Assembly (NCBI RefSeq): GCF_001752395.1
Contig: NZ_MKEK01000001.1
Coordinates: 2,471,147-2,535,146, forward strand
Direction: 5' to 3'
Length of the DNA: 64,000 bases
DNA from: Rheinheimera salexigens
GTDB taxonomy: Bacteria; Pseudomonadota; Gammaproteobacteria; Enterobacterales; Alteromonadaceae
A program made the position numbers and the translations under genes. Under the pieces are notes generated by a model. That model saw nothing but the letters and a program-made list of their open reading frames with translations. It made no database searches and was not told the DNA's origin. Below, one piece after another: positions 7,505 through 34,815 of the stretch; position 1 is the first letter of the stretch; each line of letters starts with the position of its first letter.

Positions 7505-7508
7505 AGCG

Positions 7509-11433: not shown

Positions 11434-11484
11434 GATGGCCGTAAAAAGTCCGCTTGCGACCCAAAGCGGTCATTAGGAACGATC

Positions 11485-12744: not shown

Positions 12745-13387
12745 AGCACTTGTTGCCCATGGCTTTGTGAACAAACATGAACTGGAAACCACAAGCTTTT
12801 ATATTCGCGAGTCTGGATCTGCCATTAGGTTCGCAGTCGTACATAACTTAGACGACCTAACTGCCCCTGCCGAACTGAATAACCGAATCAATCACCTTGC
12901 TCCTGAGGAATTTCTCAGAAACCCAAGCTTCAAGAAAAACTGCGATTTAATTTGTATTCATCGCCTTAACGTTCTGGCCGAATTCAAGGATCAAGAAGAA
13001 GAGATCTTCGCAATCGAAGAAGATCCGCACTTTTATAAAAAATATGTCCTTTATTACAGTACTGCGGAAGAAAGTGCGCTCACTAATTTCACATACAGCA
13101 AACTGGTATCTGTGATTGCTGAAAAAAAGGAGTTTCTTAATTACAAAGAAAACCCTCTTGAAGCTTCACAATACAGCTTCGCTGCCAAGATTTTTATCAA
13201 GCTTCCTTTCTTGGAGCTACCTAGTCATAAAGGAAATCTCGTGTCCTTGAGACAGCAAGCAACTGAGGCCGTTGCAGAAGCAGGCCTGAGCGATACGTAC
13301 TCGACTATTCAGCAAGTCACAAACGCAAACACTGACGAAATGATTAAGGAAATGATTAAAAATGAATTGGCAAATATCCAAGATTGA
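12722..13387 (+). CDS. ABC-3C-type middle component
   Basis: A 221-residue soluble protein with no catalytic motif I recognise. Size and position between an effector gene and an SMC-like ABC ATPase gene fit the middle component of ABC-three-component systems. GGAGG stands about ten bases before ATG 12722. It overlaps both neighbours (23 and 26 bases), so the three are one translationally coupled operon. Probably links the ATPase to the effector; that is inferred from gene order only. Confidence 0.65.
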   Translation: MIKQLMDEALVAHGFVNKHELETTSFYIRESGSAIRFAVVHNLDDLTAPAELNNRINHLAPEEFLRNPSFKKNCDLICIHRLNVLAEFKDQEEEIFAIEEDPHFYKKYVLYYSTAEESALTNFTYSKLVSVIAEKKEFLNYKENPLEASQYSFAAKIFIKLPFLELPSHKGNLVSLRQQATEAVAEAGLSDTYSTIQQVTNANTDEMIKEMIKNELANIQD

Positions 13388-15695
13388 AGTTTCTAGCTTC
13401 AAAGCATTCAAGCATATCTACTTGGATCTTGGCGAGTCTTCCTTGCTAACTCTCGATGGCCCGAACGGTTATGGTAAAACCAGCATATTCGACGCCATCG
13501 AGCTGCTACTTACCGGCCAGATCGGTCGAATACAAAACTTATTCTCTACTCTACTAAGTAATCGCACAAAGAACTACGCGGACAATCTCTTCTGGAACAA
13601 TCGCTCCGGCGAGAACGATCTTTGCATTAAAATTGAATTCATTAATGGTGAACGTAAACTTATTTTAGCAAGACATTGCCCAGCTTCGATATTCAAGAAG
13701 CCAGCAAACAATCGTGCAGACAATTATGAGAACTTTAACCTTTACGAGCTGCCGGAATTTGAATCATCTGACTTTACGAAGAGCAATCTGCGCGACAACA
13801 ACTTCCTTGACGACGTTTTTGGTAAAAATTTCAGGGAAAACTTCTCCTTCCTTAACTATTTGGAACAAGGACAAAACCGGCTATTACACACTCGGGTAGA
13901 CCAACGTAAGGATAAACTAGGAAACCTCTTTAACATCAGCGATATCGAAGCTGAGATTGAAAACTGCAACACCATATACAGTAAGTTCACAAGGTACATC
14001 AATAATTCTGAACGCAAGGAAAAAGCTTTATTACTACAAGAAGAGATAGCCAGCTTAAAAAGCAAATTGCAGGCAGAGACAAGTAATGTTGAGTACAAAA
14101 AACTCTCCACGACTGATGTCCAACCAATATGGGACAAGGAGATCCTATTCTCAACGTACTCAGCGGTAGATCATGCTGCCTACCAAGAATCAGTTCGCAA
14201 AATTATTGCCCTTCTACCGCTCAAAGCCACAATAAAAACTAGGGTTCACAACGAGACAATCGATGATGACATCGAACGTAACGAAGAATCTCTGAGAAGC
14301 TTAGCTCAATTTGGTAAAGACCTTGAGAAGCTTGATGGACTTGAAGCAATCAAGAAGGAGATTGATGAACTGGAGCGTTCAGCGGCCATCATCAAGCGTG
14401 GGGCCTCGATGATCAAGATCGAAGAAGCCCAATCACTACCAAACTGGGCAAATGGGCGCCATGAGTGGTTTGGGTTACAAATTGAATCTCGAAACAACCT
14501 ACGCGAAAAAAGCAGCGCCAATGCGAGCACCATAGCCGAATTAGAACGCCTGAAAGGGCAGCTGATTGATGAACATAAGAAGTCCTATCCCGATGATCAG
14601 TTGTGCCCTCTCTGTGGCACGAACTGGGAAGATCACAAATCAATGGTGGATGCCATTGAAGCAAGAACCAAGCAGATCTCTGAATCACTAAGTAAGGACG
14701 GAAAGAACTTAGTTAACCTTATTGCTGCTATGGATGCTGAGCTGACGCTTATCGACACCCATATTCAAGATAACTTGAAAGTTCTCAAGCCTACATTTGA
14801 GCCAAATCTTCATGCAGAGCTGACCAAAATTAAGCTTCGGCTCCCAGCAATAACCCTCTTAATGGAGAAGCTGAAAAGCGACAATATTCAGTTTACTGAC
14901 TCATTTACGGACAGTAATGACGTAGTAAACGAGCGACTTGAAAAGCTCAAAATGATTCTAAGGAATAAAAAACAGATTGAAGCTGATGGTTTAGCGCTGC
15001 CGGAGGACTGGCGAGAAACAACAAACAGCGCCTTCAAAGACCTACAGGACTTCTACATAATCACGCCTGAAGACTTGAGAGATAAAGAGCAGTACATATC
15101 GATTAAAGCTAACGAGGCTCAAAATGCAAGACTCCAAACCTGTATTTCCGATCTTAAACTTATCGAAAAAGAAACCCTAGCGGCCCAAAAAGCACAAGGT
15201 AAAATCAAAAAGCTCCGCGACACACTGAAGGAAACAGAGCAAAGGTATACCGACCAGACAATTTCGGCTATTGAGCTCATATTCCATATCTACAGTGGCC
15301 GACTGATCCAAAACTACCAGCGTGGTCTGGGCCTATTTATCGAGAGCCGAGAAGGTACACAGTTGAGATTTCTGACTGCCGAGAAGTCTGAACACGACGC
15401 AGTCATGTCTATGAGTTCTGGTCAGGTGTCCGCTCTTAGTCTTGCCTTCTTTCTTTCCCTAAACAAGGTCTATGCTACCGTACCTCTCATCTTGATTGAT
15501 GATCCGTCGCAATCCCTGGATGAAATTAACGTTGCTTCTTTGACAGATCTACTCCGTTGCGAACTTAAACATTGTCAGTTGGTTGTCTCTTCACACGAGG
15601 ATGATATCTCGGCCTATATGCGTTATCGATTTGAAAGGGCAGGTTTGACAACAAGCTCTCTCAACATGCAGCTCTTGGCGAAAGATGCTTGCTAA
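13362..15695 (+). CDS. SMC/Rad50-like ABC ATPase of ABC-3C-type system
   Basis: A 777-residue ABC ATPase. Walker A is GPNGYGKTS (about residues 34-42), followed by long coiled-coil segments broken near residue 414 by CPLCGTNW, a Rad50-like CxxC hook. The C-terminal half-site has signature MSSGQVSAL (about 684), Walker B ILIDDPSQSLD (about 710) and switch His in SSHEDD. The architecture is that of SMC-type DNA-associated ATPases used in conflict systems. It is the last of three overlapping genes. Likely senses DNA structure or invading nucleic acid and licenses the nuclease-like first protein. Family certain, biological role inferred. Confidence 0.85.
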   Translation: MNWQISKIEVSSFKAFKHIYLDLGESSLLTLDGPNGYGKTSIFDAIELLLTGQIGRIQNLFSTLLSNRTKNYADNLFWNNRSGENDLCIKIEFINGERKLILARHCPASIFKKPANNRADNYENFNLYELPEFESSDFTKSNLRDNNFLDDVFGKNFRENFSFLNYLEQGQNRLLHTRVDQRKDKLGNLFNISDIEAEIENCNTIYSKFTRYINNSERKEKALLLQEEIASLKSKLQAETSNVEYKKLSTTDVQPIWDKEILFSTYSAVDHAAYQESVRKIIALLPLKATIKTRVHNETIDDDIERNEESLRSLAQFGKDLEKLDGLEAIKKEIDELERSAAIIKRGASMIKIEEAQSLPNWANGRHEWFGLQIESRNNLREKSSANASTIAELERLKGQLIDEHKKSYPDDQLCPLCGTNWEDHKSMVDAIEARTKQISESLSKDGKNLVNLIAAMDAELTLIDTHIQDNLKVLKPTFEPNLHAELTKIKLRLPAITLLMEKLKSDNIQFTDSFTDSNDVVNERLEKLKMILRNKKQIEADGLALPEDWRETTNSAFKDLQDFYIITPEDLRDKEQYISIKANEAQNARLQTCISDLKLIEKETLAAQKAQGKIKKLRDTLKETEQRYTDQTISAIELIFHIYSGRLIQNYQRGLGLFIESREGTQLRFLTAEKSEHDAVMSMSSGQVSALSLAFFLSLNKVYATVPLILIDDPSQSLDEINVASLTDLLRCELKHCQLVVSSHEDDISAYMRYRFERAGLTTSSLNMQLLAKDAC

Positions 15696-18448: not shown

Positions 18449-18739
18449 ATGATCCGCAGAACAACCGAGCAGTGGCTGACGCTGTTTGACCAGCATAAAT
18501 CTAGTGGGCTAACGCAAACTGAATTTGCAAAACAGCAAGGCATTGACCCGACCTATTTCAGCTATCGTAAGCGGCAACTTCTCGCCTGGCAACAGGAAGA
18601 CGAAGCCAGTTTTGTTGAACTGACGCCGCAAGGCGTGTTGCTTAGTCAGCCAATCCTGCTTAAAAAGCGCGATGTCGAGCTGCACTTGCCGCCCGGCACG
18701 GATGCCCTATGGTTAGCAGCGTTACTCCGGGCCCTGTAA
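18449..18739 (+). CDS. tnpA: IS66 family accessory protein TnpA
   Basis: A 96-residue protein with a helix-turn-helix N-terminal half (TQTEFAKQQGIDPTYFSYRK), as in IS66 TnpA accessory proteins. AGGGG precedes ATG 18449. The first of the three IS66 genes; it ends two bases before tnpB starts. Confidence 0.88.
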   Translation: MIRRTTEQWLTLFDQHKSSGLTQTEFAKQQGIDPTYFSYRKRQLLAWQQEDEASFVELTPQGVLLSQPILLKKRDVELHLPPGTDALWLAALLRAL

Positions 18740-18741
18740 CC

Positions 18742-19098
18742 ATGAAGATGTTTATCAATACACCCAAAATCTACCTGCATAAACAGCCGGTGGATTTTAG
18801 AAAATCCATCAATGGCTTGTCACTATTGGTTGAACAGGACATGCAGCAATCACCGTTTAGCGGTGCCCTGTTTGTATTCTGTAACCGTCAGCGTACCCGA
18901 TTAAAAGTGCTGTACTGGGACAGCACCGGTTTTTGTTTATGGTACAAACGGTTAGAAAAAGACAAATTTCGCTGGCCACGCCTGATGCCCGGTAAGGTGC
19001 TCTGCATCAGTGAGCAGCAGTGGCACTGGTTATTGCAGGGTATTGATATCCAAAAACTAACACCGCATCAGCCGTTGCAATACCAAAGCGTGGGCTGA
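18742..19098 (+). CDS. tnpB: IS66 family accessory protein TnpB
   Basis: A 118-residue protein with the conserved IS66 Orf2 signatures: YLHKQPVDFRKSINGL near the start, FVFCNRQRTRLKVLYWD in the middle and GFCLWYKRLEKDKF after it. ATG 18742 is chosen; the frame is open further upstream into tnpA but that would overlap needlessly. Required together with TnpA and TnpC for transposition. Confidence 0.92.
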   Translation: MKMFINTPKIYLHKQPVDFRKSINGLSLLVEQDMQQSPFSGALFVFCNRQRTRLKVLYWDSTGFCLWYKRLEKDKFRWPRLMPGKVLCISEQQWHWLLQGIDIQKLTPHQPLQYQSVG

Positions 19099-19190
19099 TA
19101 TGCCGATCGGCTATAAATCTTTTTGATCGCAGCTTAAACAATCTAAATAAGTACAGGCACTTAGCCGCATTGGCCGTTACAATAACGGTC

Positions 19191-20714
19191 ATGAAAAAGA
19201 CACCTCCAACACTGCCTGATGATATTGAAACGCTCAAGAAAATGTTGCTTGAGCGCGATAAACGCATCGCCAAATTAGAGCAAGTAAACCAGAAGCTCTC
19301 TGATAAGCTGCAGCAATTGCTGGAGCAGTACAACCTTGCCCAGTATAAAAAATACAGCCCCAGCAGCGAAAGCTATCAGGGCGATGGCGAGGTGCTCAAT
19401 GAAGCGGAGCAGCTGGCTGACGAAGAGCAAGCCGAGACTACAGTGGTTCAGCCCGAAGCTGAAGCAGAAAAGCCCGCCACACCGCGACGTCCACGTATCG
19501 CTGCCGAGTTGCCACGGGTGGAAGTTGTCCATGATATTACCGATAAAACCTGTGCCTGCTGCGGCAATGCGCTGCACCGGATGGGTGAAGAAGTCAGCGA
19601 GCAGATTGAGTTTATCCCTGCCCAAATCCAGGTGATTAAAAACATCCGGCCCAAATATAGCTGCCGTTCGTGTGAAAATAAGGGTACGACAGTAGCGATA
19701 CAAATTGCCGATGTGCCGCCGGCCATTATTCCCAAAAGCATGGCAACACCCAGCCTGCTGGCCCAAATCATCAGCAGCAAAATGCACTACGGCCTGCCGC
19801 TGTACCGGCAAGAAAAAATGTTTGCCCAAGCCGGTATTGAACTGAGCCGACAAACCATGAGCCGCTGGTTAATCGCCTGTGCTGATAAACTGGAACCGCT
19901 GCTAGCCCTGATGAAAGACACGCTGTTGCAACAACCGGTGCTGTGGGCCGATGAAACGCCCGTCAACGTGCTGGATGTAGAAAAAAGCATCTGTTACATG
20001 TGGGTGTATGGCTGCGGTATTGAGTCGTCAACAGGCCCCAAGCTGGTACTGTTTGATTACCAGGATGGGCGTGGTGGTAAACACCCTAAAGCCTATTTTA
20101 ACGGTTACACCGGCTATCTGCAGGTTGATGGCTATGCCGGTTATGAGCAAACGGATGCGACCTTAGTCGGTTGTTGGGCGCATGCCAGACGCAAGTTCGT
20201 CGAAGCGCAAAAAGCCCAGGGTAAAGGCAAAACCGGTAAAGCCGACTGGGCCATCAATCATATCCAAAAATTGTACGCTCTGGAGAGCAAATTAAAAACT
20301 AAGGCAGCAGAGGTGAAATACCAGCAAAGACACGATGTTGCCAAGCCCTTGTTACAACAACTGCGGGACTGGCTGGAGAAATCCAAAGATGCCATCCCCA
20401 AAGAAAGTGCGCTGGGTAAAGCTATTACCTACAGCCTTAATCAATGGCCGAAGCTGATAGGTTATCTGGAAGATGGCAGGCTGAACATCGACAACAATCG
20501 CGCCGAGCGTGCTATTAAGCCCTTCGTCATCGGCCGAAAAGCCTGGCTGTTTGCTAATACCACCTCAGGGGCTAAAGCCAGTGCGGCACTTTACAGCCTG
20601 GTCGAAACCGCCAAAATCAACGGTCTGGAGCCATATGATTATCTGACCACATTATTTAAAGCGCTGCCCACCGCTGATACACCAGACAAGCTGACAAAGC
20701 TGTTGCCATTCTGA
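19191..20714 (+). CDS. tnpC: IS66 family DDE transposase TnpC
   Basis: A 507-residue transposase. Domain order: N-terminal leucine zipper (about residues 10-50), a Cys-type zinc finger (CACCGN and CRSC, about 115-165), then the DDE domain with LWADETPVNV, GYLQVDGYAGYE and the C-terminal NNRAERAIKPFVIGRK. Full length for the family with no interruption. ATG 19191 is preferred over TTG 19170, which lacks a ribosome site. Confidence 0.95.
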   Translation: MKKTPPTLPDDIETLKKMLLERDKRIAKLEQVNQKLSDKLQQLLEQYNLAQYKKYSPSSESYQGDGEVLNEAEQLADEEQAETTVVQPEAEAEKPATPRRPRIAAELPRVEVVHDITDKTCACCGNALHRMGEEVSEQIEFIPAQIQVIKNIRPKYSCRSCENKGTTVAIQIADVPPAIIPKSMATPSLLAQIISSKMHYGLPLYRQEKMFAQAGIELSRQTMSRWLIACADKLEPLLALMKDTLLQQPVLWADETPVNVLDVEKSICYMWVYGCGIESSTGPKLVLFDYQDGRGGKHPKAYFNGYTGYLQVDGYAGYEQTDATLVGCWAHARRKFVEAQKAQGKGKTGKADWAINHIQKLYALESKLKTKAAEVKYQQRHDVAKPLLQQLRDWLEKSKDAIPKESALGKAITYSLNQWPKLIGYLEDGRLNIDNNRAERAIKPFVIGRKAWLFANTTSGAKASAALYSLVETAKINGLEPYDYLTTLFKALPTADTPDKLTKLLPF

Positions 20715-21037: not shown

Positions 21038-22426
21038 TTAGAATAGCGAGCCTAATAAGTTTGGCTTATTGTGTGCAATTGACCCTTCCAGATAGTTATT
21101 TACTACCTTAGAAATACGTTTAATCAATTGCTTATCCTTAGTGAAATATCCTAAAGGAATATGTACAGGGCTTAGATCTGGCATTAATAGATGATAGCAA
21201 ACCGCTGCAAACTCATTATCCATGAAAATCACTTCAACACTACCATCAAATAAACCGTTCAAAATACCAGCACATGAAGACAGGTTACCCAGCTTTCTCT
21301 TCCATTCTTTAGTCGCTTTTTCTTTAGACTTATCGCTATCATCACTTGGTAAATACACTGTAAAATCATAACAATTATCATTGTTTTTCTTTTGATGTGC
21401 CAATAAGCATTCTTTTGCGTTATTGAAACTTTCGCTTACCCCCCAATAGCGAGTGTTTGCGCCTATCCAACTTAATGTTTTTAACGGTTCTTGTTTTTTT
21501 GCAGGTTTAAGCTGCTTCAAGTGCTGCTCTATTTTTGTCCACGGTAGTTTACTATAAAGCGAGCCTATCAATAATTCATAAGGCTTTTTGCTTGGACTAT
21601 CTGCCATTTCAGCAATCATCGCGCGAAAATCAATTTCGTCAGGTTTTATAAAGCGAGAAACCGACATATCCTCAAAAGCATCCCATGCTTGTTGAACACT
21701 ATCAATATTGCTACCTAGTCTTAAATTATCCGTGTCTTTTGCAATTGCTAGGCTTATTGCTTCGTCGTTTTCATAAATTTTATCGATATAAAAAGGTTTA
21801 ATTTTATTATCAAAGTTCATTTCAAATTTTCGTTTTATTCTATGTGAAACAGATCTCTTTTTAGTCACTTTATCAACGGAATACAGGCTAGGAAGCGAGT
21901 TATCAGCTGTCTTTATTTTACCTAATTCACCTGCTTCGAAGAAACGATGAAAGTGCTTACTAAACATATTTTTAGCATGTTGCTCGCTCATACTTTGAAC
22001 TTCATAGTTAACCGCTAGCTTAAGCCCCATATGCCAGCCACCATTGCTCTTATTAACTTTGTTAAACCCTACTAATTCGAACGTAGCATCTGATGTACGT
22101 GACTCAGGCTTCTCAACCATTGGTTTATCTTGCAAAGGAGAGAAATAACCTTTTGCCACAGTAGTTAGGCACAACCTACCGTCTTCTAAGTATGACACCT
22201 CACTTTTATTGATAGGCTCTTCTAAAGCAACATCAAGTTCACGCTGGTTGAAACCAAAAAATGAGGCTAGCTCTAATTTAGATAAAGGTGATATGTATAA
22301 GACACGAAGTAAAAAGTCTTTAGTAAAAGGGAAACCCTGCTTACTTAAATAAGAGTATTCAATGCTATAAGTTTCAGCTGGCACAATATAATCAACTTCA
22401 TTAAATTCAATATAATTATTTTCCAT
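21038..22426 (-). CDS. Partner protein of the NERD-kinase-helicase, unknown family
   Basis: A 462-residue soluble protein of unknown family. The first 100 residues look like a winged-helix domain (KLELASFFGFNQRELDVALE, EDGRLCLTTVAKGYF). No HKD, kinase or nuclease motif was found in the rest. It starts five bases after the stop of the 1665-residue helicase gene, whose last codons supply its purine-rich ribosome site, so the two are co-translated and very likely act together. Possible second subunit of a Mokosh-like two-gene defence system; this is a context guess. Confidence 0.65.
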   Translation of the reverse strand: MENNYIEFNEVDYIVPAETYSIEYSYLSKQGFPFTKDFLLRVLYISPLSKLELASFFGFNQRELDVALEEPINKSEVSYLEDGRLCLTTVAKGYFSPLQDKPMVEKPESRTSDATFELVGFNKVNKSNGGWHMGLKLAVNYEVQSMSEQHAKNMFSKHFHRFFEAGELGKIKTADNSLPSLYSVDKVTKKRSVSHRIKRKFEMNFDNKIKPFYIDKIYENDEAISLAIAKDTDNLRLGSNIDSVQQAWDAFEDMSVSRFIKPDEIDFRAMIAEMADSPSKKPYELLIGSLYSKLPWTKIEQHLKQLKPAKKQEPLKTLSWIGANTRYWGVSESFNNAKECLLAHQKKNNDNCYDFTVYLPSDDSDKSKEKATKEWKRKLGNLSSCAGILNGLFDGSVEVIFMDNEFAAVCYHLLMPDLSPVHIPLGYFTKDKQLIKRISKVVNNYLEGSIAHNKPNLLGSLF

Positions 22427-22431
22427 AATAA

Positions 22432-25400
22432 TTAAACCGCCTTTTTATGCTTATTAGGGAGTACATTTACGAAAGCATATTGGTCATTATTGTTATTATC
22501 TTCCATAAATTTAATTACACTACCAAAAGGTAAGCCGCTATTTTTTCCTTGCCACATTCTTTTATCACCAACAATAACGAGTCGATCCATTGCGCGAGAC
22601 AAAGCAACATTTATTCGATTTGACGATCGTAAAAAACCAGGAGTCTTTTGTTGTTCAGAACGGGTAACAGATAAAATAATAATACGATTTTCTTTACCTT
22701 GATAACTATCAACTGTATCAATTTTCAATATTGAAGTGAGTGACTCAGAAAGGCTAATTTTTTTAAGTTTTTGACGTATCCGTTTTTTTTGCTCACCATA
22801 CATACAAATAATACCAATAGCTGCTTCTCCTTCTTTTACTTGCTCACGAAGGTTGTTAACCAGCTCTTCATCTTCATCAACTTCTATTAGTAAATCGATA
22901 ATCGCAGCAGCTTCAGCATCATTATAAATACTTGTACCGGAACCCTCTTGATGATGTGCTTTTTTGCCTAGTAATGAAGTATCTAACCACGTTGCAGGTG
23001 ATGTTAATTGTGGCGGAACATGAGTATAAATATTAGGTATTTTTCGCTCACCGTTCTCAAGTTCACCTCTATAAAAACATTGAGACACCAGAGTGCCTAT
23101 AGCAGGAGCCATACGGTATTGAACTAATAACTTAGCACCTATTTGTTTACCGTAATGTGAGTTAAAGGCACGAGCAAAATCACTTTCAATAAGCTCATCA
23201 ATATCACCACTCGATTTAATACCTAACTTTCTAGCAAGTGCCCTTTTGTGTAGTTCTGAATACAAAGGTGGAAGTTGTTGATGATCGCCAACTAACAGCA
23301 CTCTTTTACCTGCTTGCATGGCTATCGCTAATTCACTAGCTATTGAACGTGCAGCCTCATCAATAATGACCCAGTCATATTGATTACTAGCTATATCAAT
23401 ATGCCAATTACCAATACCAACACAAGTCCCCGCAACTAGTTGACGGGAGCGAGCAAAAAATTCATCAAGATTTGCATTTCCGGAGCTCATTACTCTTAGC
23501 ATATCTTTAGAAAGTTCAATTAAACGTTTTACACTGTTAGCAATGTGAGGCTCAACTGCATACTCATTATTTAAAGCTTTAATTAAAGAATCACTGGTAG
23601 CAATTAAGTTGTCATGCCAATCTTTATTGGTTCTAATTTCATTTGATAAACGGCTATTAATTAAAGATTTTCGCTCACCAATTTGCTTTTTAAGTTCTTT
23701 TATTTGCTTCGCTTCTAACCCTTTGTTATCAAGCTCAGTTAATGTTTTAATCTGTTCACTAATAACAGATAGTAATCTCTTATCAAGCTCTAAAAATGCT
23801 TCTAAATACTCTTTAGGCGCTTTTAATGATTTAGCTAAAGCCATAACCCGGTATTTTAGTTGAGAGGAGAATTGCTCCGCTTTTTTGCTAACTATATTCG
23901 CTGAAAACACATCAAGTAATGAGCTAGAAACAGCAGCTTCACGACTACTAAACCTTACTACATCTAAGGGGGTATCAATACGATTACAGTGCTTACGAAT
24001 ACGTTCTGCTGCGGTATTTACGGCTTCATGTGACTGACTGACCAATAAAATTCGCTGCGTACCATGTTTTTCCACTAAATAATGCACAAAAGCAGCAATA
24101 AACTCTGTTTTACCCGTTCCTGGTGGCCCTTGCAGCATTGAGAGTGGGCCATACCGTAATAACTTTTGAAACGCGATACGCTGTTTGTCGTTTAGCTTTA
24201 TTGTATTGCCATTGTCATCAGTTCTATCGTAACGAGCAAAGTCTTCGGGAGTAACATTATGTTCGTAATCAATAGGATCGTGTTGGCAGTCAGGATCAAA
24301 GTAATCAACTAGGTTTTCAATTACAGAATCATTTTCAATGATTCGTGTTAGCGCATTTTTTCGCTTAGTAAAAGAGGACTTATCAGCCTTACTTCTAAAG
24401 AAAATAACATCCTCTTCCTTAAGCCTATTAACGCGAGGGCTACAACGTGAAAGAAATACTTTATTCAACTCAGTCTTTGCTAAGTTAACTTGGCCAATAA
24501 AAAACTCGTTCTCTCCTTCAATAATAATGGCCTCAACCTCATCTTTGGCGGTAAAAGCATCAAGCGGATCTTTCTCAGCTTCATAAGGTAATACGATAAT
24601 ATCCTTATTATCTTTATGTTGCAGTGGCTCACCTGTCAGCTCAACATAAGGATGTGACTCTGATTCAGTTTGAATAATCGCTTGCCAAAGCTCCCGTGTA
24701 GAAATAGGCTTAACAGCACTTTCTTCAGTTGGCTGATTAACTTCACTCACGCGCTCATCGCTAATATTGCTAATATTGCTAATATTGCTAATATTGCTAA
24801 TATTGCTAATATTGCTAATCATGTTAGCAGCTAAGCTAGCTGCTTTGCGGTTAAGTTCAAATTGCTTAATTGCATTTTCAAAGCTGTATAACTGCTTTAC
24901 TCTATGGTTTAAGCTATCTAATAGACTTGCTCTTCCTTGTCTTACACAAATAGCAAATGGCACTTCAAAATTAGCATTGTCAATATCTCTTCTTGAAATA
25001 CTTTCTCTTTTTAGAGGTGGCATACCATGCTCAAATTCAAAACGCGCCTTATCAAAGAATAACTTTTGAATACCACCCAATCCACAAAAGCTTAGGACTA
25101 AGTTTGAAGGGCTATTTCGACTTTCTTCTATAAATACATACAATTTACCGTTGTCAGGATAAATAGTGATTGGCTCAAAGCTATCTCGACTGCCAATTTC
25201 AATGTTTATCGTTTCAACCGCCACTTGCAGACATTGCGCAGGATTAAAAACAGCATCTTTAAACCGGGTTAATTCTTTAAAGCCATAATCAACGTCTTGT
25301 AACTCTTTAATTATTGCATTACTAATTGCTGGATGTAGCGAACTTTCCTTACCCCAATCAATTCTTAATAATTCTGCACATATCTTCATTACTGCAAAGT

Positions 25401-27429
25401 TATCACGCTCAAATGCAGAGCTATTTTCAACATTTGACGGGCTATATTCAGAGTTAAATATTTCTTGCGCATCATGATGAAAATCTAATACATCAATAAT
25501 ATAAACATCGCCACTGTCAGCTAAAATAATGTTTTCAGGTTTTAAATCACCATGCGAAAAGCCAAGTGAGTGCATGTGCATTACATGCGAAACTAAAGAT
25601 TTAACGATACTCTCTGGGTCTCTAACATTAACCGTTACATCAAGCGTATTGCCTGCAATCCATTCCGTCACCAAATACAAGGCGCTGTCACGTGAAGTTA
25701 TACCAACGTCTATTATTGGGGGCACAAAACTCAAATTAAGGCTTTGTAATTTTTCAACGCGCTCTAAAAAGAATAAGGTTCGTTGACCCAGCCCTGAGCT
25801 AAGCTCTGTTGGATTTATATTGTTCCATACTTTAACTAAACCAGTTTCACTCTTGTAGACTTCTTTGCTATCACTCTCTGAGACAAACTCAATTTCGGGG
25901 TGTAATCTGTTTACCTTGCTATGTTGAATAAATCTTTCAAGTTTATTAGTTGAAAACGAAAAAGCTTCTTCTTGGCATGGGGAATTATCAACTAAAGCAT
26001 CAAGTAACTCACCTGCATTTGCATAGCTTTTTCCAGTAAAAGCTTTGAGTAATACAGAGCCAAACCAATCATTACAATCACTAAACTGTTCTGTAATATT
26101 TTGTTCAAACTTAGGGGTTAAGCGCTCGGCTTTAATTATTGCCCAAGCTATAATTGCTAGCCTAGAAACATCGTAATGATAAGGGCTTGTAAAACTATCT
26201 TTTTGCTCATAAACCGATAGTTCATCACGTATTTCACCAACGCTTTCTTTTTTACGCTCAAAAGCAGAAATAAAATTAGATAGTGCGACACGTTGTCCTG
26301 TACTTAACCAAACACTATGACTACCTATATCGCGATGGGCTAAATGCAACTGATGTAAATCAGCAAAGCGAGCTATTAGCACCTTCACTAAGTTCAGCCG
26401 TTCATCAAGTGACAAGTTTTCTCCATAAGTAATAATAAAATCATTAAGCCGCTCTTGACCTTGAGGCAGCTCGACAACTTCGTTGTATTGCGAGGTTATT
26501 TTATCTTTTGATGGAATGGTTAATGATGAAACGCAATGAGCATATAAATCGTGGTTTTCACGCTTTATTTTCGTTAATATTTCTCGCTCACGCGATACAA
26601 TTTTAAATCGTCCATCAGGCGTTTTAGCCTCAATATTTATAAGCTTATCAAAGTCCCAGCTACGAATTATTGCGCGATCATTTTTATCTGATTCACTCTG
26701 AGCATAAAATTCTGAGTAACTACCTTTAGGATGCTCAAATATTTTATCTTGGCCAATCCATCCATCAACCGTTAATGGCTTGGATTCAACTTTACTTCCA
26801 TTTAACAAGCGTTTCTCTAATAAAGAAATGTCGTTAAGTAATACTCTAGATTCAGGATGAGGCGTAAAGCGTTTATTAAAAGCGTATTCGTTAGCACATA
26901 ACTTACAAAAATCACTCAAGCTTACGGTTTCAGCAAGCTCATTTTCCTGCAGTTTAGAAAAGTCACTGTTCCCTGTCATCACCACTAAAAAATATACACG
27001 CGGCAAGTGATTACCATTACTGAATTGGCCTTTAAAAGGTTTTAGTAAGTTATCTAATAAGAATTTTTTAGTGCGAGTAATTTCAACAGGAGACTTGCCT
27101 CTGTCGTCATTGCCAAAAAACCATTTACCGTTATTTGAGGTGATTGGTTGTCCATTCCAATGTTTCAATTCAATAATTAAAATATTGCAATGAGTCACAA
27201 TCAATAAATCTATTTCGCCTTGTTGGTTTCTATTAATAAAACGAAAACCTGCATAACCTTTCCAACCTGCATTAAACGAAGCTTGTATCGAGTTAAGCAC
27301 ATCAGAACCTTGGCTTGGCTTTAGATTTTTGTTCTTTTGACCTTTTGGCGAACTTAAAACATTTTTAATTTTTTCAATTGCATCGATTTCGTGACGTTCA
27401 AGGCCGCCTTGCCAATATTTAATATCCAT
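22432..27429 (-). CDS. NERD nuclease - tandem kinase - SF1 helicase fusion protein
   Basis: A 1665-residue multidomain protein. Residues about 1-150 form a NERD nuclease-related domain (QGEIDLLIV then LIIELKHWNG). Residues about 270-480 look like a pseudokinase: HRDIGSHSVWL lacks the catalytic Asn and there is no DFG. Residues about 530-720 are a second kinase with HGDLKPENII and IIDVLDF. A linker with seven Asn-Ile-Ser units follows near residue 875. The C-terminal third is a Upf1-like SF1 helicase: Walker A QGPPGTGKTEF (about 1100), a coiled-coil insertion, Walker B IIDEAARS (about 1355), GDHQQLPP, VDSYQGKE and NVALSRA. Located between hsdR and its own partner gene. Probably an anti-phage protein joining nucleic acid unwinding, cleavage and phosphorylation; mechanism is inference. 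Confidence 0.85.
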   Translation of the reverse strand: MDIKYWQGGLERHEIDAIEKIKNVLSSPKGQKNKNLKPSQGSDVLNSIQASFNAGWKGYAGFRFINRNQQGEIDLLIVTHCNILIIELKHWNGQPITSNNGKWFFGNDDRGKSPVEITRTKKFLLDNLLKPFKGQFSNGNHLPRVYFLVVMTGNSDFSKLQENELAETVSLSDFCKLCANEYAFNKRFTPHPESRVLLNDISLLEKRLLNGSKVESKPLTVDGWIGQDKIFEHPKGSYSEFYAQSESDKNDRAIIRSWDFDKLINIEAKTPDGRFKIVSREREILTKIKRENHDLYAHCVSSLTIPSKDKITSQYNEVVELPQGQERLNDFIITYGENLSLDERLNLVKVLIARFADLHQLHLAHRDIGSHSVWLSTGQRVALSNFISAFERKKESVGEIRDELSVYEQKDSFTSPYHYDVSRLAIIAWAIIKAERLTPKFEQNITEQFSDCNDWFGSVLLKAFTGKSYANAGELLDALVDNSPCQEEAFSFSTNKLERFIQHSKVNRLHPEIEFVSESDSKEVYKSETGLVKVWNNINPTELSSGLGQRTLFFLERVEKLQSLNLSFVPPIIDVGITSRDSALYLVTEWIAGNTLDVTVNVRDPESIVKSLVSHVMHMHSLGFSHGDLKPENIILADSGDVYIIDVLDFHHDAQEIFNSEYSPSNVENSSAFERDNFAVMKICAELLRIDWGKESSLHPAISNAIIKELQDVDYGFKELTRFKDAVFNPAQCLQVAVETINIEIGSRDSFEPITIYPDNGKLYVFIEESRNSPSNLVLSFCGLGGIQKLFFDKARFEFEHGMPPLKRESISRRDIDNANFEVPFAICVRQGRASLLDSLNHRVKQLYSFENAIKQFELNRKAASLAANMISNISNISNISNISNISNISDERVSEVNQPTEESAVKPISTRELWQAIIQTESESHPYVELTGEPLQHKDNKDIIVLPYEAEKDPLDAFTAKDEVEAIIIEGENEFFIGQVNLAKTELNKVFLSRCSPRVNRLKEEDVIFFRSKADKSSFTKRKNALTRIIENDSVIENLVDYFDPDCQHDPIDYEHNVTPEDFARYDRTDDNGNTIKLNDKQRIAFQKLLRYGPLSMLQGPPGTGKTEFIAAFVHYLVEKHGTQRILLVSQSHEAVNTAAERIRKHCNRIDTPLDVVRFSSREAAVSSSLLDVFSANIVSKKAEQFSSQLKYRVMALAKSLKAPKEYLEAFLELDKRLLSVISEQIKTLTELDNKGLEAKQIKELKKQIGERKSLINSRLSNEIRTNKDWHDNLIATSDSLIKALNNEYAVEPHIANSVKRLIELSKDMLRVMSSGNANLDEFFARSRQLVAGTCVGIGNWHIDIASNQYDWVIIDEAARSIASELAIAMQAGKRVLLVGDHQQLPPLYSELHKRALARKLGIKSSGDIDELIESDFARAFNSHYGKQIGAKLLVQYRMAPAIGTLVSQCFYRGELENGERKIPNIYTHVPPQLTSPATWLDTSLLGKKAHHQEGSGTSIYNDAEAAAIIDLLIEVDEDEELVNNLREQVKEGEAAIGIICMYGEQKKRIRQKLKKISLSESLTSILKIDTVDSYQGKENRIIILSVTRSEQQKTPGFLRSSNRINVALSRAMDRLVIVGDKRMWQGKNSGLPFGSVIKFMEDNNNNDQYAFVNVLPNKHKKAV
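24761..24819 (-). repeat. 9-bp in-frame tandem repeat in helicase linker
   Basis: Six perfect copies of CTAATATTG plus a partial seventh. On the coding (minus) strand each unit encodes three residues, giving an Asn-Ile-Ser run between the kinase and helicase domains. Copy-number change would lengthen or shorten the linker without breaking the frame. Confidence 0.9.
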
Positions 27430-27505: not shown

Positions 27506-30500
27506 CTAAATACTACTCATCATATTGAAGATCAACTTTGTAAACAGATCCGCTTTTCTTGGGTCGCTTAGCAATTGCATCATCTGGTTTTGATGGGCAT
27601 CGCTGCTGCTTAAAATTGCATCGTCTACGGCTTTAGGGAAGTCACCTAGCATGGCTTGCTCTGGTGTGTTGTTGGCCACTTGGTGCATTACCGTTGTGTT
27701 TTCTTTTACCTTACCCAAAATGGTGTAGGCATAGTTAATCATATCGGCGTTGGTAAGCTCGTCGGTAATAAACAGTTCATTTAGTTTTGCCACCAACTCT
27801 GAAAGGAAGATTTCTTTTTTATCTTTAGGTGATGCTGAACCTAAGGCATCGCCTGGTTCTAGTTTACAGTCTGCGGCGTCTTCTTTTAGCTTAATGTCTT
27901 GCTGGCGAATTTTAGATAAGCGGTAATGGCTCATCACCACATTGCTTAGATCGATATCTTCTTCGTCTGTTTCAGCTTCACGCAGCATTGGCCTTAGGTT
28001 ACGTGCATAAAGGCTAAGCATTTCTAAGTCTTTATTTTCGTAATCGACAATTTGCGACATAAACTCATAAAAACGAACAAAGGTGCCTAAATCTTTCTTG
28101 AATATCTCCAATGCATCTTTTTCTTTTTTACAGTCTTTAAAGCTGTTTTCAGCGTTAGCAATTAACACGGCATCATTTGTCTTCTTTGTGCGCTCAAACA
28201 TCTCTTTGGATTGCTTATACGCTGCCACAGCCGACTTATAACGGCTAGTCCAACGCTGTACCGCAGGTTTACAGATATTGCCAATAGCGGCGTTACTTTT
28301 ACTTTTAACAAAGAAGGCTTGAGCGAACTGCTCTACTTCATACCATTGGAATATCCCCGCAGCACGTAGCTTGTCATGCAAATCCCAGATTAAGTTAGGA
28401 TCAGAAACATCGGCCAATTCAGCGGTTTGATAATAAGGCTGAAAGGCATCCAGAATATCTTGCGGCTCGTTAAAGAAGTCTAAAACAAAGGTGCCCGTTT
28501 CTGCCTTACCTGGATAGGTACGGTTTAAGCGAGAAAGCGTTTGCACACATTCAACACCACCGAGCTTTTTATCCACATACATAGCGCATAATTTAGGTTG
28601 ATCAAAACCGGTTTGAAATTTATTGGCCACTATCATCACTTGATAATCATCGCTGTCGAAGGCTTTACGCATATCACGCCCTTTTAGGCCAGGGTTCATA
28701 TTAGCTTCGGTAAATTTGTCACCAATTAACGCTGCTGAGTTAGGATCTTTGTCGGTGAATTCTACTTCACCTGAAAAAGCGATCATGGCTTCAATGGCTT
28801 GATAGCCTTTTTCTGCTTTTTTATCGGCTAAATATTTATCAAAAGACAGCTTGTAGCGTACTGCTTCTTTACGCGAGCTAGTTACTATCATGGCTTTAGC
28901 CTGACCACCTAATAAACCCATGATGTTGTCTTTAAAGTGCTCAACTATCACCTGTACTTTCTGGCTTATATTGTAGTCGTGTAGGCGCACCCATTGGTTA
29001 AGTTTTACCTTGGCTTTTTTGCTTTCAACTTCTTGATCCTCGCTTTGCACTTTCATAGCAAGGTTATAAGCCACTTTATAGTTAGTGTAGTTTTTTAACA
29101 CATCTAAAATAAAGCCTTCTTCAATAGCTTGGCGCATGCTGTACACATGGTAAGCTTCTGGCTTATTGGTTTTAGAAGCAGGTTGGCTTGGGTCTGGCAA
29201 GCGGCCAAATAGCTCTAAGGTTTTAGTCTTAGGTGTAGCGGTAAAGGCTAAATAACTAAGGTTCTTAGAAGCTTTGCGCGAGGCTACAGCGGCGTCAAGA
29301 ATATCATCTGCGCTTAGCTCTTCATCTTCGCCTTTGCTATCTATCATTAACACTTCTTTTAGCTGCCGAGCAGTGCTGCCGGTTTGCGAGCTATGGGCTT
29401 CATCAGCAATAACCACATAGTTACGCTCTTTTAAGCTAACGCTGTTTTCAATGGCTTTTAATACATAAGGGAAAGTTTGAATAGTCACAATAATAATGGG
29501 CTGTGAGCTTTCTAGCGCCGCGGCTAATTTTTCTGATTTAGAGCCATCACCTTCAGTGCGATTAATACGGCCAACCACACCTTCGGTAGCCGTAAATTGC
29601 GAGATAGTTTCTTGTAATTGATCATCAAGTACCGTTCGGTCTGTTACAACAATAATAGAGTCAAACAGCTTATTACCTTCGGCGGTATGCAGTGCCGACA
29701 ACTGGTGAGCAGACCAAGCAATAGAATTAGATTTACCCGATCCCGCACTGTGTTGAATAAGATACTTTTGGCCTGGGCCTTCACTGCGGGCGGCATTAAC
29801 TAACTTGCTAACCACATCCCACTGATGGTAACGCGGAAATATTAAGGTTTCTTTCTTGTACCGGCGCCCTTCCCAATCTTCTTTGTCTTCAATTTCTAAA
29901 TGAATAAAACGAGCCAGAATATTCAACAAGTTATCGGGTAGTAATACCTCGTTCCACAAATAATCGGTTGCGAATTGGTTTATATCGGCTGGAACATCGT
30001 TGCCTGCACCGCCTTCAGCCGTACCTTTATTAAAAGGTAAGAAAAAAGTGTTATCACCTTCTAAACGCGTGGCCATATACACTTCATATTGGCTAACAGC
30101 AAAGTGCACTAAAGCGCCACGCTTAAAGGTAAGCAATGGCTCTGGTTTTTTAGTGGCGGGGTCAATAGGCAAGCGCGTGGTTTTATACTGCTTAATGGCA
30201 TTTTGAATAGCCTGTTTAAACTCAGACTTAAGCTCTAAGGTGGCAACCGGCAAACCATTTAAAAACAAAACCAGATCAATGCGCCATTTTTTGGCTTTTG
30301 CACCCGTTTCTAATTCATGCTCAATACTTGTCCACGGTGAATAAGTTAACTCTGGCACAAGGCGTAATCGGTTCTTAGCGTAACGGGCTAAAGTATCAGG
30401 GTTTAAGTCATGCTCGGGCTTAAATTGGCATAAACTAAAGCGAGTACCACGGTCACGCAATTCATTACGTAACACGCCTAAAGTACCGAAGCTACGTAAT

Positions 30501-30796
30501 TCTTTATTAGCTGCATTAGGGTCGGCTTTGTTTAATTGCGAAGCAACACGCTCTATAAACTTTTTCTCTGGATGCTTTTCATTGCCAACAGATGGGGGGT
30601 AAAGTGCACAGAATTTTTGCCATTGCTCATCTTGAGTGTCTTTAATAAAACCCAACACATCTTCTTCATACAAGGCCAATTCGCGGTTATAACCAGCGGG
30701 ATTACCCAGCAACCAACCATTAGCAAGCAACTGATTAATCATATCGTTTTGAAATATAAACTCAGTTGATTTATCACCACCAAATACAGCTTGCAT
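27506..30796 (-). CDS. hsdR: Type I restriction enzyme R subunit HsdR
   Basis: A 1096-residue motor/nuclease subunit, normal length. N-terminal PD-(D/E)xK nuclease with the ATLELKSEF motif (about residue 187), SF2 translocase with Walker A SAGSGKSNS (about 353), DEAH in IADEAHSSQ (about 467), TATPKT, and a GFDQP/LNRTYPGK late helicase region. The C-terminal helical domain docks the M2S core. It cuts DNA lacking the methylation pattern set by HsdM/HsdS. Minus strand, 137 bases after hsdS, and may have its own promoter in that gap; the NERD-helicase gene follows after 76 bases. Confidence 0.95.
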   Translation of the reverse strand: MQAVFGGDKSTEFIFQNDMINQLLANGWLLGNPAGYNRELALYEEDVLGFIKDTQDEQWQKFCALYPPSVGNEKHPEKKFIERVASQLNKADPNAANKELRSFGTLGVLRNELRDRGTRFSLCQFKPEHDLNPDTLARYAKNRLRLVPELTYSPWTSIEHELETGAKAKKWRIDLVLFLNGLPVATLELKSEFKQAIQNAIKQYKTTRLPIDPATKKPEPLLTFKRGALVHFAVSQYEVYMATRLEGDNTFFLPFNKGTAEGGAGNDVPADINQFATDYLWNEVLLPDNLLNILARFIHLEIEDKEDWEGRRYKKETLIFPRYHQWDVVSKLVNAARSEGPGQKYLIQHSAGSGKSNSIAWSAHQLSALHTAEGNKLFDSIIVVTDRTVLDDQLQETISQFTATEGVVGRINRTEGDGSKSEKLAAALESSQPIIIVTIQTFPYVLKAIENSVSLKERNYVVIADEAHSSQTGSTARQLKEVLMIDSKGEDEELSADDILDAAVASRKASKNLSYLAFTATPKTKTLELFGRLPDPSQPASKTNKPEAYHVYSMRQAIEEGFILDVLKNYTNYKVAYNLAMKVQSEDQEVESKKAKVKLNQWVRLHDYNISQKVQVIVEHFKDNIMGLLGGQAKAMIVTSSRKEAVRYKLSFDKYLADKKAEKGYQAIEAMIAFSGEVEFTDKDPNSAALIGDKFTEANMNPGLKGRDMRKAFDSDDYQVMIVANKFQTGFDQPKLCAMYVDKKLGGVECVQTLSRLNRTYPGKAETGTFVLDFFNEPQDILDAFQPYYQTAELADVSDPNLIWDLHDKLRAAGIFQWYEVEQFAQAFFVKSKSNAAIGNICKPAVQRWTSRYKSAVAAYKQSKEMFERTKKTNDAVLIANAENSFKDCKKEKDALEIFKKDLGTFVRFYEFMSQIVDYENKDLEMLSLYARNLRPMLREAETDEEDIDLSNVVMSHYRLSKIRQQDIKLKEDAADCKLEPGDALGSASPKDKKEIFLSELVAKLNELFITDELTNADMINYAYTILGKVKENTTVMHQVANNTPEQAMLGDFPKAVDDAILSSSDAHQNQMMQLLSDPRKADLFTKLIFNMMSSI

Positions 30797-30933
30797 AGGG
30801 TTAAGTCCTTTTATGTTCTTTTAATATTTTTGTTATATTCAATCTTACGCTTACTCAGCTTGCCAATTACGTATATCACAAATCGGCAGGGATAGCTGAT
30901 TTGGACAATGACACAAACTCTCAATATTCGACA

Positions 30934-32265
30934 CTATGCACTAATCCCACTTGTGTCATTACCCGCAGGGTGTGAGACATGATGTCGAACATCAATTTTA
31001 CCAGTTACGGCTGCGGAGATTAGTGCAGTGCGGCGCTCTTGCATTAGTTGAATATTCTTTTCGCATTTAGAAACAGTTTGATCGATCACAGTTAGCTTAT
31101 GCAGTGTCTCTCTAACAATTTCGATTTGTTCATCAGCAGGTGGGCACGAAACCACTAACTCTCTGATGGTTTCTTGATTGATATTAGGGTCTTTTCGCGC
31201 ACCCTCTGCACCTACCATCCAATAAGGTCGATAGAACTCTACATATAAATGTAAAAAGTCAGGGTGTATTTTTTCATTTGGAAGGATTGCACAGACCGCC
31301 TGATTTATTGACGATTCAAATTTTAATAAAGAGTGTTTGCCAATAGTTCCTGCTCCACCATACATTGCTATCAATACGGAATTGATAGGTATAATTGTGC
31401 ATGCTGACTCTCGAATAGCTTTGCTTGTAATAGATATGGGAGTTTCAAAAAGCTGATCATTATTCAAGTCTGTTGATCTTATCCAAGGAATATTACCATC
31501 CTGATAATATTCCTCATATTTAGAGGTGCTTGGTGTACCTCCACTTTCAGTCTTATAAAACCACTTTATCTTTGGGGAGCGCCAATGCTCCGGCACTTCC
31601 CCTAGCCACTCAACACCTGAATCACGCATCGGGGCGTTGGGGTTTAGGCCTTTGGTGACGGCATGACTAATAACGGCTTGGCGTTTTTCTTTTAGCAGTT
31701 GGATAAGCTGTTGTTGTTTGTCGATAAGGGTATCGATTTTGGCGGTTTCGTGATCAAGGAAATTGGCGATTTTTTCAGCTTCGTCATCAGGAACTTCAGG
31801 GATTACAATGTTTTTCATCTCCGAAGAGTTTGTGCTCCATAAGTCTGCAACTATCCCCTTACCGTAACGATAAAATTCTTCCTGAAAGGGTTGGCTTCTT
31901 AAAAGATGATGTGCATAGCTTGGACTGATACGTTTTGGCTCCATAACTATGCTAATTAAAGATACAGAGCCTTCCAAAGGTGAAATGCCAGAAGAACCTT
32001 TACGGTCTGACCTGCTATTAATAACAAAATCATTTTTCTTCACCAGCTTTCGATTGTCACCAGCATCTGTTTTGGCTGCATTCTCAAGCTGTGGAACAAT
32101 CCCACTCATCGTCACGGAAAGCGCTGAATAATCTTTATCACTAACTTTTTCACGTCGCTCTACAAAAAACTGCCCCAGCCTTTTTGCTTCCCAATGTTCG
32201 GGCAACTTACCCAGCCACTCAACCCCAGAATCCTTATATTTCGGATACGCCTGATACTTACCCAT
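30934..32265 (-). CDS. hsdS: Type I restriction enzyme specificity subunit HsdS
   Basis: A 443-residue protein with two target-recognition domains, each opened by the classic motif (EWLGKLPEHW near residue 15 and EWLGEVPEHW near 220) and each followed by a helical conserved spacer (FLDHETAKIDTLIDKQQQL and the C-terminal copy). The two half-domains give a bipartite target sequence that cannot be read from the protein. It is separated from hsdM by an unusual 177-base hairpin-rich insert. Confidence 0.93.
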   Translation of the reverse strand: MGKYQAYPKYKDSGVEWLGKLPEHWEAKRLGQFFVERREKVSDKDYSALSVTMSGIVPQLENAAKTDAGDNRKLVKKNDFVINSRSDRKGSSGISPLEGSVSLISIVMEPKRISPSYAHHLLRSQPFQEEFYRYGKGIVADLWSTNSSEMKNIVIPEVPDDEAEKIANFLDHETAKIDTLIDKQQQLIQLLKEKRQAVISHAVTKGLNPNAPMRDSGVEWLGEVPEHWRSPKIKWFYKTESGGTPSTSKYEEYYQDGNIPWIRSTDLNNDQLFETPISITSKAIRESACTIIPINSVLIAMYGGAGTIGKHSLLKFESSINQAVCAILPNEKIHPDFLHLYVEFYRPYWMVGAEGARKDPNINQETIRELVVSCPPADEQIEIVRETLHKLTVIDQTVSKCEKNIQLMQERRTALISAAVTGKIDVRHHVSHPAGNDTSGISA

Positions 32266-32442
32266 GAACTAATCCTCTTGTTGAGGGTTTTTGCGTGAGA
32301 GCAAGGCGTGCCTGCGCGCAGCGAAGGAGCATACAGATCGTATGTGACTGAGCGGCCGCTCTTTTGCATCCATGCAAACGCGGCATACCGTTCGTCCTGA
32401 ACATAAGCACAGCCACAACGCAGCAATCGCGTAAAAAGACCA
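32266..32442. repeat. Hairpin-rich insert between hsdM and hsdS
   Basis: 177 bases, more GC-rich than its neighbours, containing two clear palindromes: CATAC-AGATC-GTATG and TTTGCAT-CC-ATGCAAA, plus GCGGCCGC. hsdM and hsdS normally abut or overlap, so this looks like an inserted MITE-like or REP-like repeat. An open frame crosses it in the same direction but has odd composition and no family resemblance. Confidence 0.5.
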
Positions 32443-34815
32443 TCAGGAGTGCACCTCTTGCAGCAGCGCCATAATCTCCGCCGACACCGCATCTAAATCC
32501 GCATCAATCTCGGCTAAGTCCCTTGGTGGCTGGTACTCGTAGAAGTGGCGGTTAAACGGAATCTCGTAACCGACAATGCCAATCTGCTCGTCTTTCGCAT
32601 CTTTCTTACTGGCGTCGATCCAGGCATCCGGCACATGGGGCTGCACTTCTTTTATAAAGTAGGCTTCGTTGAGGGCATTAACGCTTTGACTTGGGTCCAG
32701 TGCGACGTTTTCATTATCGCGCAGCTCGCTGTCGGGCTGGTATTCAATGGTTTTGCCGTTGACATCAAACAGGCCATAGATTGGATTAGGTGAAACTTTG
32801 TGGACTTTCTTAATCACTTTCTCGGCCGCTGGGTTTTTCCAGCTGACAGCGGCGGTGATTTGTTTCAACTCTTTCGTATCGAGCTTGAGGCTTTGCGCTT
32901 TGATCGCAGCTTTTACCGCAGCATCGTAGCGATTCATATCATCGTGCTGCTCACTGCCAATCACCGCTTGCAGTTGCTGAGCTTTGAACATGATCAGTTT
33001 TTGCTCAAGCCAAGTTTTGCTATCGAGTAGTTCTTTGATTTTCGCTTCTTTGAGCTCGCTGAAATTGGCTTTGCAATGCACGCGAATCTCAACGATTTGA
33101 TCGTCATTAAAAACGCCATAGTTTGCACAATCAGTGCTGTCGCTCCAGTTCTGCCCGTAGCTGGCATACACCCACTTCATCGGGGCATTCAGTTGTTTGT
33201 CATCAAAACGCAGTTCGGCAATGCGCTCATCACTGAACTGGTAGCTTTCGCGCAATGGGCGCTCAATGCTGATGCGGCGGTAACCAAATTCATGGTTGTC
33301 GAAAATCTTGCTGGCAAAGGTTTTCGCGGTTTCAGCTTTGGGGTTAGCTGACTGGCGGCCACGATTGCTTTTAACATCAGCAGGCTTATCTAAATCTCGT
33401 GCTTCTTCTTCGGTAAAGGCACCAAAGCTGCGAATGATGGTGGCGATATCTGACTCGCTCATCTCATTGCGTTTGCTGCCGAGGGATTTGCGCATTTTGC
33501 TGTACAGATTGACGCCATTGATCAGCTGCACTTTGCCTTTGCGTTCGTCGCGCTTTTTATTCGACAGCACCCAAACATAGGTGGCGATGCCGGTGTTGTA
33601 GAACATATCGGTGGGCAGGCCAATAATGGCTTCCACCAAATCGGCTTCTAGCAGGTAACGGCGAATCTCGGATTCACCCGAGCCCGCGCCACCAGTAAAG
33701 AGCGGCGAGCCATTAAGGATAATACCGATACGACCGCCGCCTTCGTTTGTATCACGCAGCTTGTCGATTAAATGCATTAAGAACAATAACGAACCATCGG
33801 AGACGCGTGGCAAGCCGGGGCCAAAACGACCATCAAAACCTTTAAGGGTATGTTCGTCTTTAATGCTGGATTCAATCTTTTTCCAGTCCACACCAAACGG
33901 TGGGTTAGAAAGCATGTAGTCAAATTTGTCGGCGTACAGCTGGTCGTTGGAAAGCGTGTTGCCGAGTTTAATATTAGAAACGTCTTGCCCTTTTATCAGC
34001 ATGTCGGCTTTACAAATGGCGTAGCTCTCAGGGTTGAGCTCTTGACCAAAGGCACGCATAACAGCGTGAGGGTTCAGTTCGTGTACGTATTCCATACCCG
34101 AAGACAAAAAACCGCCCGTACCTGCTGTTGGGTCATATATGGTACGGATAATACCGGGCTTGGTTAGCGCATCGTCGTCTTCCATAAACACTAATGCTGT
34201 GGTTAGGCGCACTATGTCACGCGGGGTAAAGTGCTCACCGGCAGTTTCATTAGAGCCTTCAGCAAAGCGGCGAATTAATTCTTCAAACACTAAGCCCATA
34301 TCGTGGTTAGAAATCGCCTTAGGGCTAAGGTCGGTTTGGCGTACTCTTTGTACTACTTTAAACAGTAAGTCGGCATCGTTAAGCTGACCTAAAAACTCAG
34401 CAAAGTTAAAGTATTCAAATATCTCTCGGGCATCTTTAGAAAAGCTTTGAATATAGTTTTCCAAGTTAGCTTTAATGTCGTCTTGGCCAAGCTTGGCTAA
34501 GTCCATTTTAGAGGTGTTATAAAAGCTTAGGGTTTGGCCATTAACTTGGGTTGCCCTTAATAGCAGTTTTTCTTGCGCTTCTTCTGGCAGGTTCATGGCT
34601 TGAATTCTGTCGTACTCGGCTAATACCTGCTGTTTGCTTTGTCCTAGCACGCCTTCTAAACGGCGCAGTAAGGTAAAGGGTAATATAATGCGGCCATACT
34701 GGCTTTGCTTAAAGTCACCACGTAACAAGTCGGCGATAGACCAGCAAAATGCAGCCAAATTGTTTGGTTTAGCGTTAGGTGTAGAAGACGTACTATCTGC
34801 CATTTTAATATCCAT
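32443..34815 (-). CDS. hsdM: Type I restriction enzyme modification subunit HsdM
   Basis: A 790-residue N6-adenine DNA methyltransferase. N-terminal helical HsdM domain ([20 protein letters not shown]), S-adenosylmethionine motif [10 protein letters not shown] (about residue 232) and catalytic NPPFG (about 307). It is about 250 residues longer than the common 500-550-residue HsdM, owing to a C-terminal extension rich in charged residues found in one HsdM subgroup. ATG 34803 is an alternative start; neither has a strong ribosome site. First gene of the hsdM-hsdS-hsdR cluster. Confidence 0.93.

What the first reader, a model, noticed from the sequence alone, without database searches (positions are those of the whole stretch)
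21038..27429. NERD nuclease, pseudokinase, kinase and Upf1-like helicase in one protein, with a dedicated partner
The 1665-residue protein joins four enzymatic or regulatory modules and is co-translated with a 462-residue unknown protein beside a type I restriction locus. Kinase plus COG1112-type helicase recalls type I Mokosh, but a NERD nuclease at the N-terminus and the tandem kinase arrangement may mark a distinct system.
Basis: partly seen in the sequence, partly recalled or inferred. Interest (0 to 1): 0.72.

Follow-up and report, generated by a model that had tools for sequence, protein, structure and literature searches.

The report
Ordinary type I Mokosh phage-defence operon
The two genes are an intact copy of type I Mokosh, an already catalogued bacterial anti-phage system, and the nuclease and paired kinase domains that looked unusual are standard parts of its large protein.

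Summary
ORF 22432-27429 (-; 1665 aa) has a NERD domain, a kinase-fold domain lacking catalytic residues, a kinase with intact motifs and a Upf1-type SF1 helicase. ORF 21038-22426 (-; 462 aa) starts 5 bases after its stop. Both match PADLOC Mokosh models over nearly their whole length: MkoA PDLC03921 (1873 bits, residues 1-1656 to positions 1-1600 of 1607) and MkoB PDLC03923 (E 6e-101, 1-454 to 3-445 of 454). That MkoA model already covers the NERD and both kinases. A 2023 review lists NERD under Mokosh type I; the NERD-pseudokinase-kinase trio is in print for PglW and DndF. In 295 genomes of the order the same 9 carry mkoA and mkoB. 309 of 5,426 complete E. coli genomes carry at least 80% of a homologous pair. 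One modest addition is a predicted MkoB structure: a winged helix plus a phospholipase-D-like domain without the HKD motif, which suggests NERD does the cutting. The locus sits in a defence island with a Lamassu-like operon and a type I restriction system.

The parts
22432..27429 (-). mkoA, 1665 aa (NERD - pseudokinase - kinase - SF1 Upf1-like helicase)
   Evidence: ORF; PADLOC MkoA PDLC03921, E 0, 1873 bits, residues 1-1656 against 1-1600/1607
26986..27276 (-). NERD nuclease-related domain (aa 52-148) with E72, D74, E87-x-K89
   Evidence: Pfam PF08378 E 1.7e-11; E72, D74, E87 and K89 identical in 128 of 128 distinct homologues
25969..26781 (-). pseudokinase domain (aa about 217-487)
   Evidence: predicted kinase fold; catalytic-loop Asn position is Ser in 127 of 128, DFG Asp position is Ser in 128 of 128
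25225..25917 (-). kinase domain with intact motifs (aa about 505-735; K533, HGD 626-628, N633, D646)
   Evidence: Pfam Pkinase E 7.8e-11; K533, H626, D628, N633 and D646 in 128 of 128; boundaries read by eye from the secondary structure of the model
24760..24819 (-). 6.7 perfect copies of a 9-base repeat, coding an Ile-Ser-Asn repeat in the kinase-helicase linker
   Evidence: Tandem Repeats Finder; a three-residue unit repeated four or more times occurs in 1 of 130 aligned rows, the window itself
22561..24198 (-). SF1 Upf1-like helicase (AAA_11/AAA_12, aa 1078-1623)
   Evidence: Pfam; tested Walker A residues (G1101, G1104, G1106, K1107, T1108) and Walker B D1357, E1358 in 128 of 128; best PDB sequence matches are Nam7/Upf1
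21038..22426 (-). mkoB, 462 aa
   Evidence: PADLOC MkoB PDLC03923, E 6.1e-101, 1-454 against 3-445/454
22118..22336 (-). winged-helix domain of MkoB (aa about 31-103)
21047..21613 (-). phospholipase-D-like domain of MkoB without HKD motif (aa about 272-460)

Best explanation
The pair is a type I Mokosh anti-phage operon, mkoA-mkoB. Shown by computation: family membership, gene order and conserved motifs. Inferred mechanism (about 0.5 likely as a whole): MkoA and MkoB form a complex. The Upf1-like helicase loads on and moves along a phage nucleic-acid species, helped by the winged helix of MkoB. The NERD domain cuts nucleic acid. The kinase, held by its pseudokinase partner, switches the complex by phosphorylating itself, MkoB or another protein when infection is sensed. 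Which nucleic acid (RNA or DNA) is cut, and whether the outcome is clearance of the phage or death of the cell, was not determined here. The confidence given is for the identity.
For: MkoA and MkoB matches over nearly the whole of both proteins (the tool gives no curated cut-off for PADLOC models). The same 9 of 295 genomes of the order hold both families, side by side (one of the 9, G083, has an internal stop in mkoA). Local tblastn finds MkoA in 23 of 23 fetched loci and MkoB directly downstream in 21 of 23; the other 2 (L016, L020) were fetched through an HMM match to MkoB. These loci were all chosen for holding one of the two genes, and some are the same place twice (L001 and L018 are the window; L004/L014 and L005/L017 share contig lengths). 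A plasmid pair from E. coli, one from P. aeruginosa and one from a Pseudomonas phage match the same two models. Nuclease, active-kinase and helicase residues are invariant in 128 distinct MkoA sequences. The setting is a defence island. NERD is listed for Mokosh type I in PMC10952713; MkoA is grouped with SF1 Upf1 helicases in PMC10925250.
Against: No phage assay exists here for this locus. PADLOC also has a shorter MkoA model (PDLC03920, 1112 positions) whose position 51 aligns with residue 552 of the E. coli protein, so it appears to lack the NERD and pseudokinase; I could not establish which form was tested in the original Mokosh study (not held). In two distant copies (P. aeruginosa L021, phage L011) the best, sub-threshold Pkinase stretch falls on the first kinase and not on the second, and the phage copy keeps the catalytic-loop Asn there, so 'first inactive, second active' is less clean at the family's edge. 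The mechanism steps are inferred. The 128 sequences are mostly top-scoring relatives, so their conservation is biased upwards.
Confidence: 0.95

Rival explanations
1. It is a distinct, undescribed system that only shares the helicase with Mokosh, defined by the N-terminal NERD and tandem kinases.
For: A shorter MkoA model that appears to lack that N-terminal half exists (PDLC03920), and the other MkoB model (PDLC03922, 610 positions) matches the window MkoB only weakly (E 0.026).
Against: PDLC03921 and PDLC03923 carry the Mokosh names and match both proteins over nearly their full length. NERD is listed under Mokosh type I in print. The listed homologues 70-82% identical over 100% of the protein carry NERD, Pkinase, AAA_11 and AAA_12 in their precomputed Pfam domains.
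Confidence: 0.04
2. It is a BREX type 2 (PglW) or MADS (MAD6) component.
For: The N-terminal half matches PglW (56-389, E 1e-22) and MAD6 (best stretch 59-416, E 8.7e-30). The NERD-pseudokinase-kinase trio is described for PglW and DndF.
Against: Scores are far below the NCBIfam cut-offs (PglW 74 against 990 bits; MAD6 103.8 against 460). The C-terminal half is a helicase and the partner matches MkoB.
Confidence: 0.01

Closest known systems
Type I Mokosh, long form (PADLOC MkoA PDLC03921 + MkoB PDLC03923)
   Same: Near full-length match of both proteins, gene order, domains and catalytic motifs.
   Different: A 9-base tandem repeat in a linker, not seen in the other 129 aligned rows. About 46-47% identity to enterobacterial MkoA.
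Short-form MkoA (PDLC03920) and the other MkoB model (PDLC03922)
   Same: Kinase plus helicase core.
   Different: By model length and alignment it appears to lack the NERD and pseudokinase. That this MkoB model belongs with the short MkoA is my inference; it matches only weakly.
Mokosh type II (MkoC PDLC03924)
   Same: Upf1-like helicase (best stretch 1340-1648).
   Different: Single-protein system with a fused PLD domain (recalled). Here the PLD-like fold is in the separate MkoB and lacks the HKD motif.
PglW (BREX type 2) and DndF
   Same: NERD-pseudokinase-kinase trio at the N-terminus.
   Different: Different C-terminal halves, as described in PMC12839542, and different partner genes.

Membership tests
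Mokosh type I | MkoA with a serine/threonine kinase and a COG1112/Upf1-like helicase (definition recalled) | tested here: met
   PDLC03921 over residues 1-1656; Pfam Pkinase, AAA_11 and AAA_12; motifs intact
Mokosh type I | Adjacent MkoB gene | tested here: met
   PDLC03923 E 6.1e-101; 5-base gap; 9 of 9 mkoA-bearing genomes among 295 have mkoB beside it
Mokosh type I | NERD domain (long form) | tested here: met
   PF08378 E 1.7e-11; listed for Mokosh type I in PMC10952713 (passage seen)
Mokosh type I | Protects against phage | not testable with these tools
   needs a phage assay
Mokosh type II | Single MkoC protein | tested here: not met
   MkoC scores 124.7 bits, best stretch 1340-1648, against 1873 bits for MkoA; a separate mkoB is present
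BREX type 2 (PglW) | PglW above the curated cut-off | tested here: not met
   NF033442 74 bits against 990
MADS (MAD6) | MAD6 above the curated cut-off | tested here: not met
   NF047741 103.8 bits against 460

The most novel reading that the evidence does not exclude
In long-form type I Mokosh the phospholipase-D-like nuclease fold survives in MkoB as a catalytically dead, winged-helix-tethered nucleic-acid reader, while the NERD of MkoA has taken over cutting. Type I and type II Mokosh would then share an ancestral helicase-PLD pair in which the nuclease was swapped.
Probability: 0.35. Interest if true: 0.35.

Novelty: already known. Interest (0 to 1): 0.13.

Why it matters
It does not add a new system; a routine PADLOC scan names it. 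Its small value is a testable division of labour (NERD cuts, an HKD-less PLD fold reads, a pseudokinase-kinase pair switches) and a further example of the NERD-pseudokinase-kinase trio shared by Mokosh, PglW and DndF.

Tried and rejected

Linkage to the type I RM system as part of Mokosh: weak. With the window's Hsd proteins as queries, 3 of the 6 loci from genome contigs (L003, L005, L006) have both HsdR- and HsdM-like matches, at 24-26% identity, and 3 (L002, L004, L007) have none at E 1e-4; more distant RM genes could be missed.

Literature: 279 papers, 40 listed; 44, 20 listed; 29, all listed. By title none of the 29 papers is a mechanistic study of Mokosh; only titles and abstract openings were seen there. 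The original Mokosh paper (id recalled) is not held. The Asgard paper's statement that Mokosh degrades viral transcripts (PMC11291487, passages seen) is that paper's citation and was not checked.

Rows left out of the 128-sequence counts: L004 (tblastn match in two pieces; one search shows one stop inside a copy on a contig of the same length), L010 (copy split by an IS3 element), L023 (same tblastn score as L009; its mkoB match is in two pieces and is not annotated), the partial loci L012-L020, L001 (the window itself), and 47 of 166 database proteins (the 46 MkoB hits and P0156, 984 aa). The 119 database MkoA proteins come from the 120 listed of 1,558 hits, so distant relatives are under-represented. 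130 rows gave 128 distinct sequences.

A first reading took the wrong column for the catalytic-loop Asn; one search recounted the right one (D+5), and the report uses that.

Full report
Observation. The 1665-aa ORF (22432-27429, -) and the 462-aa ORF (21038-22426, -) are intact; 5 bases separate them. Pfam supports NERD, kinase and helicase. The first kinase region is not where any Pfam kinase model has its best stretch in the window protein, but it folds as a kinase (the first Foldseek row is a JAK structure, with a kinase and a pseudokinase by recall, at TMq 0.20 and rmsd 22.7, so not a rigid match). In 128 distinct homologues it keeps HRD, but the catalytic-loop Asn position is Ser in 127 and Asn in 1 (phage D14H copy), and the position matching the DFG Asp by spacing is Ser in 128. 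The second kinase keeps K533, H626, D628, N633 and D646 in 128 of 128. NERD E72, D74, E87 and K89 are in 128 of 128, as are the tested Walker A and B residues of the helicase. Against a simple picture: in the P. aeruginosa and phage copies the best, sub-threshold Pkinase stretch lies on the first kinase.

Identity. PADLOC names both proteins: MkoA PDLC03921 (E 0, 1873 bits, 1-1656 against 1-1600/1607) and MkoB PDLC03923 (E 6.1e-101, 1-454 against 3-445/454). Because that MkoA model has 1607 positions and aligns from residue 1, the NERD and both kinases are part of the catalogued family. A review lists NERD under Mokosh type I, and a PLD-like domain under Mokosh types I and II and Azaca (PMC10952713, passages seen). 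The NERD-inactive kinase-active kinase trio is described for PglW and DndF (PMC12839542; PMC10853773; passages seen).

Distribution. Of 295 genomes of the order, 9 have MkoB (E up to 1e-10) and the same 9 have MkoA (E up to 1e-100), side by side; one of these mkoA copies (G083) has an internal stop. None of the 14 control genomes has either. On plasmids 136 of 72,556 records hold at least 80% of MkoA in one place, and 2 of 50,697 phage records do. A plasmid pair from E. coli (L009) is found over at least 80% of its length in 309 of 5,426 complete E. coli genomes; a second E. coli pair (L008) also gives 309 of 5,426. In the E. coli, P. aeruginosa and A. baumannii plasmid copies the two annotated genes overlap by 4 bases.

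Setting. The locus lies in a defence island: a Lamassu-like operon at 11416-15695, IS66 genes at 18709-20714, Mokosh, and a type I RM system at 27506-34815. The genome search found one mkoA match in the window's own genome.

Verdict. Confirmed observation, ordinary identity.

Noticed in passing
window 11416-15695 (+): Lamassu-like three-gene operon: LmuA-like (442 aa, ABC-3C CTD1; 84 bits), LmuC-like (221 aa; 68 bits) and LmuB/SMC-like (777 aa; 271 bits).
   Followed up: partly
window 24760-24819: 6.7 perfect copies of a 9-base repeat inside mkoA, coding Ile-Ser-Asn repeats in a linker; such a repeat was found in the window only among 130 aligned rows. Frame-keeping, so whole-unit length changes would not switch the gene off.
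   Followed up: partly
window 1725-8072 (-): Three overlapping genes (1099, 843 and 187 aa), the first with a phage-integrase match below Pfam's cut-off, look like a multi-gene recombinase module.
   Followed up: no
L021 13346-16980; L011 9212-12126: TetR-type regulator and integrase genes lie downstream of mkoAB both on a P. aeruginosa plasmid and in phage vB_PaeS-D14H, suggesting carriage on an integrative element.
   Followed up: no
L010 6001-12184: The Vibrio casei plasmid copy of mkoA is split by an IS3 family transposase gene.
   Followed up: no
L009 12556-16962: The mkoAB pair on an E. coli plasmid sits beside a TnsD-like gene and two TIR-domain genes.
   Followed up: no
L011 2204-7162: The phage D14H MkoA copy keeps Asn in the catalytic loop of the first kinase, the only one of 128 that does.
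   Followed up: no
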